Assembly: GCA_902623685.1 (NCBI GenBank)
Contig: CACNUQ010000003.1
Coordinates: 1 to 64,000 of the forward strand
Direction: 5' to 3'
DNA: 64,000 bases
Source: an uncultured SAR86 cluster bacterium
GTDB lineage: Bacteria > Pseudomonadota > Gammaproteobacteria > Magnimaribacterales > D2472
The first letter of the stretch is position 1. Each line of letters begins with the position of its first letter. The notes under the pieces were generated by a model that made no database searches, was not told the origin of the DNA, and saw only the letters and a list, made by a program, of their open reading frames with translations. Positions 18,631 to 21,598 of the stretch are shown in pieces. The translations under genes and the position numbers were made by a program.

Positions 18631-19047
18631 TTATAAATCTCCATCTTTTCTATGCTCACTGCGATCAACTTCGAACTTTTCTCCATACCTTGCTTCAAGC
18701 TTGTCTTGATTTTCTTTGATAACTTCATATGGATCAAGTTTTAATGCCATACAGGCAGTAGCCCAGTACCACATAATATCTCCCAACTCTCTTTTCATAT
18801 GAAAAATATTATCTTCTGATGCTGGTTTTCCTTGAAGGAACATCTTTTTTACTATTTCCACAAATTCGCCTGTCTCACTACCTAACCCAAGTGCGGCGGT
18901 AAATAGTCTTGCAGATTCTATAGGAGATGAGGAATCAATTTCCTTCATTCGAGCGTGTAAAATGTTTAAATCCAAACTTGGCTCGCTTGTTACTTTGGTT
19001 ACAAAATCTCCATAGCTATTAAGAAATTTTTTTACATCTTCGCTCAT
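18631..19047 (-). CDS. MazG-like nucleotide pyrophosphohydrolase
   Basis: GLGSETGEFVEIVKKMF...KRELGDIMWYWATAC, EXXE/EXXD MazG pattern. Confidence 0.8.
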   Translation of the reverse strand: MSEDVKKFLNSYGDFVTKVTSEPSLDLNILHARMKEIDSSSPIESARLFTAALGLGSETGEFVEIVKKMFLQGKPASEDNIFHMKRELGDIMWYWATACMALKLDPYEVIKENQDKLEARYGEKFEVDRSEHRKDGDL

Positions 19048-19070
19048 TTTTTCTCCTTAGATAATATGCA

Positions 19071-20078
19071 TCAATCATTTTCAAAATTAACTGAATTAAA
19101 GGGCTCGAACTTAGATTGAATTTCTTCAAAGCAAAAACTATTTGTTGCGAGCTCCTCGTCAATAATTTTTTTGTTTATTAAGTCTACTCCAGAAAGGATT
19201 CCAAAGTCTTTAATAGATCTTAATTTACCAAGGCCAAAAGGAGACTCTAAGTTATTGTTAATTAGATCTCCTAACCTAGATTTACTCAATCTATCTAACT
19301 CATTCCACTTAATTGCTCTATTTTTTTCATCCTCTGGATCCCAATGAAGTTTTCTAATTAAATTATCCACATCTGTGTATAGGTGAAATAGGGGTACTCT
19401 AGGTATGTGCACAACATCCCACATGTTGGTATATAACCTAAGCGCGATACTCAATTCTTCGCCATGAAAATAGAACTTAGGATCATAGGGGATTAAACTT
19501 GCAAATTCTTTTCTAGCAAAAATAAAACCTCCAGCAATCAGTAATCCTTTTGCAGGCAAATTAGTGTTTGCAGGAAAACTTTTTTGCATTGAATAATATC
19601 CATCTTCAAACATTCTTTTTTCTCTAAAAGTTATCCCAAGCGTCTCTTTATAGGCTGTATTTAACTTAAAGCTGTCAAGTTCTTTATTTGGCTTAAAGCC
19701 TCTTGGGTATCCCGAAATGACAAAATGATTTTCAAGACATTTTTCTATCCAGGCATGATAATTAATTAAAATCTTATCCCAGTTTTTTGCAAAAATAGTA
19801 TGAGAGTCGATTTGAAGGAAATAATCTTCATTTGAAATAAGACTTTGAATTCTTGCTCTTGCCCAACATGGCCCTTTTGCCATTACAGGATCTAATAATT
19901 CATATTTAATCTGGTCTTTAAAATTAATAGAATGAACATTAATACCGTTATCAGCTTGTTCGCATACACCAAATACAAGGTTATCTTTATTTTCTGCATT
20001 TTGATAAGCACTACATAGTGTTTCAAGCAAGAGTGGATCTTGATAGGATGCTACAGAAATAAAAATTTTCTTCGACAT
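19071..20078 (-). CDS. GlcNAc-transferase family protein (PF11397/GT60-like, Skp1 Gnt1-type)
   Basis: IFISVASYQDPLLLETL N-terminus; AKGPCWARARIQSLISNEDYFLQIDSHTIFAKNWD; YHGEELSIALRLYTNMWDVVHIP; recalled family signatures. Confidence 0.8.
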   Translation of the reverse strand: MSKKIFISVASYQDPLLLETLCSAYQNAENKDNLVFGVCEQADNGINVHSINFKDQIKYELLDPVMAKGPCWARARIQSLISNEDYFLQIDSHTIFAKNWDKILINYHAWIEKCLENHFVISGYPRGFKPNKELDSFKLNTAYKETLGITFREKRMFEDGYYSMQKSFPANTNLPAKGLLIAGGFIFARKEFASLIPYDPKFYFHGEELSIALRLYTNMWDVVHIPRVPLFHLYTDVDNLIRKLHWDPEDEKNRAIKWNELDRLSKSRLGDLINNNLESPFGLGKLRSIKDFGILSGVDLINKKIIDEELATNSFCFEEIQSKFEPFNSVNFEND

Positions 20079-20113
20079 GATAGAAATCTTTTTTTAAACT
20101 ACAATTATCTCAC

Positions 20114-20755
20114 ATGAAAGATCAAGAATATCCAAAAAGAATTGCTGAAAATGTGATCATGTACGCTGCAGATCCAATACTGTATGTAGTCGATAATTTT
20201 TTAAGCAAAGATGAATGCCAAGCTTTTATCAATACTGCTGAAGGTAAGCTTAAGCCTTCAACTGTTATAAGTCCTGATAAGCATGTTCAACATGAAAGCA
20301 GGACAAGTGAGAATTGCTGGATAGAGCATGATGCAAATGAAATTATTCATGAAGTAAGTAAAAGATTTTCAATTTTAGTCCAAATGCCAATAAGAAATGC
20401 AGAGCAGTACCAGCTTGTATATTATAAAAAAGGAGCTCAGTATAAACCTCATTTTGACTCATTCGACTATGAGACTGAAGATGGAAAGAATAATTGGGAG
20501 CCAGGTGGCCAAAGAATGGTTACAGTAATTGCATATCTTAATGATGTAGAGGAGGGAGGCGAAACAGGTTTTCCAGAGCTAAATATTAATGTTCCACCAA
20601 AAAAAGGTGATGTAGTGGTTTTTCATAATACCCTTCTTGATGATTCATCAACTTATCCAAAAATTAATCCAAAATCACTTCATGGAGGCATGCCTGTAAT
20701 CAAGGGTGAAAAGTGGATGGTAAATCTTTGGTTTAGGGAAAACCTTAGATACTAG
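20114..20755 (+). CDS. Prolyl-4-hydroxylase-like 2OG-Fe(II) dioxygenase
   Basis: QLVYYKKGAQYKPHFDSFD (HxD), AYLNDVEEGGETGFPEL, LHGGMPVIKGEKWMVNLWFRE (distal His and 2OG-binding Lys). Confidence 0.9.
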   Translation: MKDQEYPKRIAENVIMYAADPILYVVDNFLSKDECQAFINTAEGKLKPSTVISPDKHVQHESRTSENCWIEHDANEIIHEVSKRFSILVQMPIRNAEQYQLVYYKKGAQYKPHFDSFDYETEDGKNNWEPGGQRMVTVIAYLNDVEEGGETGFPELNINVPPKKGDVVVFHNTLLDDSSTYPKINPKSLHGGMPVIKGEKWMVNLWFRENLRY

Positions 20756-21598
20756 TTACTTTAACTTTAGAGAACTTTGACTAGTTACAATGTTAAACAA
20801 ATGATCTTGAGCCTCTGGCTTAAGCTGAGCAACACCAACTGCCAAAACATCAATAATTGCCATGTAAGCTAACCTTGAAGTTAGTGGCCTAGTTAATCTT
20901 GCATTCCCGCCAACATCAATATCTAGAGAAATGTCGCATATTCTTGAGAGAGGAGTATTTGAGGGCATAAGCCCAATAACAATAACACCAAAACTTTTAA
21001 CTGTTTTTATGCTTTCGACCAAGGCCGCAGTATTTCCAGACTGAGATATGGCCACAACCACATCCCTATTATTTAGAGAATTTGCTGACATAAATTGAAT
21101 GTGAGGATCAGAAATACACGAGGATGGTATTTTGAGTCGAAAAAATTTGTGTTGTGCATCCATGGCAATTGCTGCAGAGCCCCCAAAAGCATAAAATTCT
21201 ACTCTTTTGGCATTAGCCAATGTTTCGATTGCCTCCTCAAGTGAGGTTTGATTAAGTTGTGATCTAACATTCAAAATTTCACTGATGGTACTATCGAATA
21301 CTTTCTCAGTAAGCTCTTGAATAGAGTCTTCAGAATCAATTTCGTAGGAATTAAAATAGTCATCTGCGGCAAGCTGTTGAGCAAGGGTAAGTTTAAACTT
21401 TTGAAAACCATCAAAATTAACAGCTTTACAAAATCTTATTAGGGTAGGCTCGCTAATTCCTATCTCCTCTGAAGCTTGTGCAGTAGTTAGCTCAATAATT
21501 GCACTTGGCTTATTTAAAATATATTCAGCAACTTTTACTTCTGATTTTCTTAAGTTAGGAAGCGCAATTTTAATTTCTCTTAATAATTTAGTTTGCAT
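20756..21598 (-). CDS. MurR/RpiR-family transcriptional regulator (HTH plus SIS domain)
   Basis: N-terminal HTH (ASEEIGISEPTLIRFCKAVNFDGFQKFKL) and SIS domain (VVAISQSGNTAALVE). Confidence 0.9.
   Translation of the reverse strand: MQTKLLREIKIALPNLRKSEVKVAEYILNKPSAIIELTTAQASEEIGISEPTLIRFCKAVNFDGFQKFKLTLAQQLAADDYFNSYEIDSEDSIQELTEKVFDSTISEILNVRSQLNQTSLEEAIETLANAKRVEFYAFGGSAAIAMDAQHKFFRLKIPSSCISDPHIQFMSANSLNNRDVVVAISQSGNTAALVESIKTVKSFGVIVIGLMPSNTPLSRICDISLDIDVGGNARLTRPLTSRLAYMAIIDVLAVGVAQLKPEAQDHLFNIVTSQSSLKLK

What the first reader, a model, noticed from the sequence alone, without database searches (positions are those of the whole stretch)
19071..20755. Head-to-head GT60/PF11397-like GlcNAc-transferase and prolyl-4-hydroxylase: candidate bacterial hydroxyproline-glycosylation module
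Seen: a minus-strand protein carrying PF11397-like signatures (SVASYQDPLL, GPCWARARIQSL, YFLQIDSHTIFAKNWD, HGEELSIALRLYT) starts 35 bp from a plus-strand P4H-like 2OG-Fe(II) dioxygenase with HxD, distal His and 2OG Lys. Known: in Dictyostelium Skp1, a P4H makes hydroxyproline and Gnt1 (GT60) adds GlcNAc to it. Inference: a divergently transcribed pair of the same two activities could modify a bacterial protein by proline hydroxylation then GlcNAc capping. The substrate is unknown, and bacteria are not expected to have Skp1.
Basis: partly seen in the sequence, partly recalled or inferred. Interest (0 to 1): 0.85.

Follow-up and report, generated by a model that had tools for sequence, protein, structure and literature searches.

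The report
Bacterial proline-hydroxylation and glycosylation gene pair
A marine SAR86 bacterium carries, back to back, an enzyme of the kind that hydroxylates prolines in proteins and an enzyme related to those that attach a sugar to proteins; the pair stays together across SAR86 and recurs in fused or phage-borne form elsewhere, hinting at a bacterial and phage version of hydroxyproline glycosylation previously known from protists and plants.

Summary
In a SAR86 MAG, 19071-20078(-) is a PF11397 glycosyltransferase (E 1e-43) whose model best matches polypeptide GalNAc-transferases; 20114-20755(+) is a prolyl 4-hydroxylase of algal/collagen/Bacillus type with all cofactor residues. In 108 SAR86-family genomes the two occur together, head to head, at one site; all 38 resolved pair-negative loci lack both, and in 23 the flanking genes simply abut. 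Outside SAR86, PF11397 is fused to a true P4H (G765), fused to another 2OG oxygenase (G498), and set beside a P4H in a phage head-gene module (L289), on separate branches of the GT tree. Sequential prolyl hydroxylation and O-glycosylation of one protein is the best explanation, with moderate confidence. Substrate, sugar and acceptor are unknown; PF11397/GT60 includes Ser/Thr-specific enzymes; most PF11397 genes examined have no P4H nearby. The partners also decouple: the P4H lost its iron ligand in two or three lineages, all with a swapped GT allele, and one genome replaced the GT. SAR86 GTs nest among phage GTs, so phage origin is likely. The P4H is not of the Skp1 (PHD) subtype: an analogue, not an orthologue, of the Skp1 pathway.

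The parts
19071..20078 (-). PF11397 (GT60-like) glycosyltransferase, 335 aa, DSH metal motif (residues 91-93), GEE (206-208), H232; GT allele class A
   Evidence: Pfam E 9.6e-44; AlphaFold model pLDDT 92.8; Foldseek top hits ppGalNAc-T2/T4/T7/T1; residues invariant among 24 homologues and in every SAR86 row that covers them
20114..20755 (+). Prolyl 4-hydroxylase (2OG-FeII_Oxy_3), 213 aa, H113/D115/H190, K200, R134, W206
   Evidence: Pfam 3.2e-17; phmmer to BaP4H 5e-33 and Cr-P4H-1 4e-31; Foldseek top hit 3gze, algal P4H with (Ser-Pro)5 peptide
20079..20113 (.). 35-bp intergenic region with -10-like TACAAT (20100-20105, + strand) and an overlapping GATAAT on the - strand: possible shared divergent promoter
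   Evidence: TACAATTAT just before the P4H start in 29 of 48 loci against 40 occurrences in 214,526 nt overall; most others carry TATAATTT in the same place
18631..19047 (-). MazG-like pyrophosphohydrolase: flank of the cassette site, same strand as the GT, probably not part of the module
   Evidence: PF03819 E 1.3e-7; present with or without the cassette
20756..21598 (-). RpiR/HexR-like regulator: other flank of the cassette site
   Evidence: PF01418/PF01380; abuts MazG in 23 of 38 resolved cassette-negative loci

Best explanation
A two-gene cytoplasmic protein-modification cassette, probably of phage ancestry for the GT. The P4H uses O2, Fe(II) and 2-oxoglutarate to turn a prolyl residue of a target protein into 4-hydroxyproline. 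The PF11397 GT then moves a HexNAc (probably GlcNAc) from its UDP-sugar onto that protein, most simply onto the new hydroxyl. Both may be co-expressed from overlapping divergent promoters. Shown: the families, folds, cofactor residues, conserved cassette and independent fusions. Inferred: sequential action on one substrate, hydroxyproline as acceptor, GlcNAc as the sugar. Unknown: the substrate. In some lineages a swapped-in GT allele (class A) seems to have made P4H activity dispensable. The window carries class A with an apparently active P4H.
For: GT is PF11397 with ppGalNAc-T fold matches. The P4H matches peptide-binding P4Hs in sequence and fold. Of 108 SAR86-family genomes 47 have the GT, 48 the P4H and 46 both, divergent and adjacent in all 32 loci checked. 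All 38 resolved pair-negative loci lack both genes. Independent pairings: one polypeptide P4H-GT-TTL/ATP-grasp, 875 aa, in G765; GT fused to a 2OG oxygenase in G498; phage contig L289 with P4H, second 2OG oxygenase and GT as overlapping consecutive genes after the portal-like gene. These lie on separate GT branches. A -10-like element is conserved in position.
Against: The P4H has lost its iron-binding His or more in G019, G015/SAR86E and G047/G048 although the GT is intact. P4H dN/dS is 0.30 against 0.07 for the GT between G047 and G048. G053 keeps the P4H but has an unrelated phage-family protein in the GT slot; G040's GT frame is broken, possibly by assembly error. Only 3 of 80 viral GT loci have any P4H-like hit within the fetched flank, and most other proteobacterial PF11397 proteins scanned carry methyltransferase domains instead. 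GT60 includes Ser/Thr-specific enzymes (PMC8724618). No target protein was found.
Confidence: 0.5

Rival explanations
1. The GT is a cytoplasmic Ser/Thr (mucin-type-like) protein GlcNAc-transferase, and the P4H hydroxylates prolines of the same or a neighbouring protein. The two act in the same programme but not on the same atom.
For: GT60 includes the T. cruzi Ser/Thr enzyme and is related to GT27 (PMC8724618; PMC6939170). Fold matches are Ser/Thr GalNAc-transferases. P4H activity is lost in some lineages while the GT stays.
Against: The fusions and the cassette's all-or-none behaviour are most simply read as one reaction sequence.
Confidence: 0.25
2. The GT decorates a glycan, lipid or other surface polymer, and the P4H acts on something else. 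Linkage reflects a cargo hot spot between rpiR and mazG whose GT alleles are swapped under phage or grazer pressure.
For: GT alleles exchange between genera while the P4H mostly follows the species. The site carries other cargo in relatives (SDR in g4, an NMO-like gene in g3/g5). B4GALNT1 (glycolipid) and GlfT2 also appear among fold hits.
Against: Top fold hits are nearly all polypeptide transferases. Fusions and the phage module lie outside this site. No surface-polysaccharide gene cluster lies next to the pair.
Confidence: 0.2
3. The P4H targets a translation factor such as EF-Tu, as in Pseudomonas and Bacillus, and the GT is an accidental neighbour.
For: A BaP4H entry titled 'Prolyl 4-Hydroxylase Interacts with and Modifies Elongation Factor Tu' (5v7y) is among the best matches. 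The switch-I proline (DNAPEE) is present in SAR86 EF-Tu.
Against: EF-Tu has that proline in pair-positive and pair-negative genomes alike and no column separates them. Accidental adjacency does not explain the independent fusions.
Confidence: 0.05

Closest known systems
Skp1 prolyl hydroxylation/GlcNAc pathway (PhyA + Gnt1, GT60) of Dictyostelium and Toxoplasma
   Same: A peptidyl-proline hydroxylase paired with a PF11397/GT60-type transferase; oxygen-dependent first step; cytosolic enzymes (PMC6939170, PMC7864055, PMC8724618).
   Different: Bacterial; genes clustered; the P4H is of C-P4H type, not PHD type (DdPhyA 6t8m only at 1e-9 in the fold search, and absent from the sequence hits); no Skp1 expected; acceptor and sugar untested.
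Bacillus anthracis P4H (3itq, 5v7y) and Pseudomonas putida PPHD (4iw3)
   Same: Bacterial prolyl hydroxylases; BaP4H is the best sequence match (5e-33).
   Different: Not reported, as far as found here, as partners of a glycosyltransferase.
Polypeptide GalNAc-transferases (GT27)
   Same: Best fold matches; DXH, Glu and His motifs in the same order, with the E207-H232 spacing equal to E334-H359 of GalNAc-T2 (GalNAc-T2 numbering from memory).
   Different: No lectin (ricin) domain; about 15% identity; TM-score 0.5-0.58.
Phage PHROG 24687 glycosyltransferases
   Same: The SAR86 GT matches at 2e-36 and nests among viral GTs.
   Different: The viral genes mostly have no P4H neighbour; function unknown.

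Membership tests
PF11397 glycosyltransferase (GlcNAc) | Profile score above the curated cut-off | tested here: met
   150.7 bits against 21
GT60 polypeptide alpha-GlcNAc-transferase | Fold related to ppGalNAc-T without a lectin domain | tested here: met
   Foldseek top hits GalNAc-T2 and others, 335-aa single domain
GT60 polypeptide alpha-GlcNAc-transferase | UDP-GlcNAc donor and polypeptide (Hyp or Ser/Thr) acceptor | not testable with these tools
   Needs an enzyme assay
Prolyl 4-hydroxylase, C-P4H/algal type | HxD...H iron triad and 2OG-binding Lys | tested here: met
   H113, D115, H190, K200 aligned with solved P4Hs
Prolyl 4-hydroxylase, C-P4H/algal type | Closest to peptide-prolyl hydroxylases rather than other 2OG oxygenases | tested here: met
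   All significant sequence hits in the PDB are prolyl hydroxylases; fold ranks 1-46 are P4H or PHD entries
Prolyl 4-hydroxylase, C-P4H/algal type | Hydroxylates peptidyl proline | not testable with these tools
   Needs an enzyme assay
Skp1 hydroxylation/glycosylation pathway | PHD-type PhyA hydroxylase | tested here: not met
   C-P4H type; no PHD hit by sequence, DdPhyA at rank 39 by fold
Skp1 hydroxylation/glycosylation pathway | Skp1 substrate | not tested
   Not searched; bacteria are not expected to have Skp1
Obligate two-step module | Both activities conserved together in every lineage | tested here: not met
   Iron-ligand losses in G019, G015/SAR86E, G047/G048; GT replaced in G053

The most novel reading that the evidence does not exclude
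Bacteria and phages possess a genuine hydroxyproline O-HexNAc protein glycosylation system: a P4H plus a PF11397 transferase, assembled several times, moved between phage head-gene modules and SAR86 chromosomes, modifying virion or cell proteins.
Probability: 0.4. Interest if true: 0.85.

Novelty: new variant of a known kind. Interest (0 to 1): 0.62.

Why it matters
Hyp-linked glycans are known from plants, algae and the protist Skp1 pathway. A bacterial or phage version would show that this chemistry exists outside eukaryotes, offer a possible prokaryotic or viral source for PF11397 enzymes, and reveal an O2-dependent protein modification in one of the ocean's most abundant bacterial groups. 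The fused P4H-GT protein from G765 makes the question directly testable with a single polypeptide.

Tried and rejected
EF-Tu as a co-varying substrate: the switch-I proline is present in pair-positive and pair-negative genomes, no diagnostic column. Proline-run proteins in the window's genome: five pattern matches, equal to the reversed-pattern control, none in an open frame with PPPP. The idea that every PF11397 gene travels with a P4H: rejected, 3 of 80 viral loci and none of three other gammaproteobacterial loci. Direct PDB sequence relatives of the GT: none convincing. Annotated phage P4H neighbourhoods (Erwinia Y3, Microcystis Mel-JY01) and phage GT neighbourhoods (XacN1, RAS14) showed no annotated pairing. 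Viral P4H loci found with the SAR86 profile had no PF11397 GT nearby. My reading of G053's replacement gene as an oxygenase was by eye; Pfam found nothing and PHROGs gave a phage family named 'ferrochelatase'. Literature searches found no bacterial report.

Full report
What is there. The window lies in a SAR86 MAG of 1.3 Mb in 41 contigs; near relatives found by the GT are SAR86E and AG-447-P08. The minus-strand ORF is PF11397 at E 9.6e-44. The plus-strand ORF is a 2OG-Fe(II) oxygenase whose significant solved relatives are all prolyl 4-hydroxylases: B. anthracis 5e-33, Chlamydomonas 4e-31, human C-P4H-II 2e-25, chlorella virus 4e-19 (the last identified). The start codons are 35 bp apart.

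Folds and residues. The GT model (pLDDT 92.8) is matched best by polypeptide GalNAc-transferases, E down to 4e-11 with moderate TM-scores of 0.5-0.58. D91, S92, H93, G206, E207, E208 and H232 are invariant among 24 homologues. The P4H model (pLDDT 89.2) is matched best by algal P4H with a (Ser-Pro)5 peptide, then BaP4H; Dictyostelium PhyA is far lower. H113, D115, H190 and K200 align with the cofactor residues of solved enzymes. These support the two activities but do not prove the acceptor: GT60 covers both Hyp- and Ser/Thr-directed enzymes (PMC8724618; PMC6939170).

Conservation of the pair. In 108 genomes of the family, 47 have the GT and 48 the P4H; 46 have both. The GT-only genome (G072) and one P4H-only genome (G092) are cut by contig ends; G053, a single-contig genome, is a true exception. 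Order and orientation were the same in every one of 32 loci checked. With MazG as anchor, 38 pair-negative loci were resolved; none has either gene. In 23 of them RpiR and MazG sit next to each other; the rest carry an NMO-like gene or a short-chain dehydrogenase, or lack RpiR. The pair is therefore gained or lost as a unit. Because synteny is shared by descent, this alone is not many independent events.

Independent pairings. In G765 (another group of the same phylum) one 875-residue protein contains P4H, PF11397 and a TTL/ATP-grasp-like domain. In G498 a PF11397 protein carries a C-terminal 2OG oxygenase domain. In viral contig L289 the order is terminase-like, portal-like, P4H, second 2OG oxygenase, PF11397 GT, co-chaperonin-like, scaffold-like, capsid-like, with the portal-to-GT genes overlapping end to start; sister contigs keep one 2OG gene (several of these gene names rest on reading the translations). 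A tree of 55 GT domains puts SAR86, L289 and the two fusions on separate branches and nests SAR86 (support 95 for the clade) among viral sequences, nearest L281/L238. This is the strongest evidence for functional coupling. It must be set against the many PF11397 genes without a P4H: only 3 of 80 viral loci have a P4H-like hit, two of them weak, and most proteobacterial members scanned have methyltransferase domains.

Possible shared promoter. TACAATTAT lies just upstream of the P4H start in 29 of 48 loci, and TATAATTT in the same place in most of the others. The reverse strand of the window's copy reads GATAAT, a -10-like hexamer for the GT. The general promoter scan found no excess over shuffles, so this rests on positional conservation, and the divergent-promoter reading is inference.

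Decoupling. The GTs fall in two classes (A, 10 sequences; B, 38; support 96/100), with class A shared between genera g1 and g6 while the P4H tree does not split this way, implying GT allele exchange. Five of 10 class A genomes (G019; G015 and SAR86E, whose sequences here are identical; G047 and G048) have P4Hs without the first iron-ligand His; G047/G048 have lost the distal His and Lys too. None of the 39 other P4H sequences has such a loss. This is two or three events, so the association with class A is suggestive only. P4H dN/dS between G047 and G048 is 0.30 against 0.07 for the GT. One reading is that class A transferases no longer need hydroxyproline; another is that the enzymes were never strictly sequential.

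Substrate. No candidate was found. EF-Tu, hydroxylated by a Pseudomonas prolyl hydroxylase (PMC7864055), shows nothing that tracks the pair. The proline-run search of the own genome gave nothing useful.

Verdict. Real, conserved and more interesting than a chance neighbourhood. The hydroxyproline-glycosylation model is the leading hypothesis at about 0.5, with a Ser/Thr-directed GT acting alongside the P4H as the main rival. It works like the Skp1 module but is not a member of that pathway.

Noticed in passing
window 19047-20756 and L156-L194: The rpiR-mazG gap is a variable cargo site in SAR86: GT/P4H cassette, NMO-like gene, short-chain dehydrogenase, P4H plus another phage-family gene, or nothing.
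   Followed up: partly
L069:6771-7589: In single-contig genome G053 the GT slot beside the P4H is taken by a 272-aa protein of a phage family named 'ferrochelatase' in PHROGs (E 9e-38), with no Pfam hit; by eye it has HxD/H-like motifs of an oxygenase.
   Followed up: partly
L153:8045-10672: The P4H-GT fusion also carries a C-terminal tubulin-tyrosine-ligase/ATP-grasp-like domain, suggesting a third modification step.
   Followed up: no
L071:26-15211: A gammaproteobacterial PF11397 gene lies between two giant repeat-rich, adhesin-like genes (3106 and 1513 aa), a possible glycosylation target.
   Followed up: no
L278, L289, L393: A family of phages carries a PF11397 GT at or near the end of the portal-like gene and before co-chaperonin-like, scaffold-like and capsid-like genes; virion glycosylation is worth testing.
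   Followed up: partly
L138, L144, L146, L147, L154: Many proteobacterial PF11397 proteins have a C-terminal methyltransferase domain (FkbM type in L154), possibly capping the sugar.
   Followed up: no
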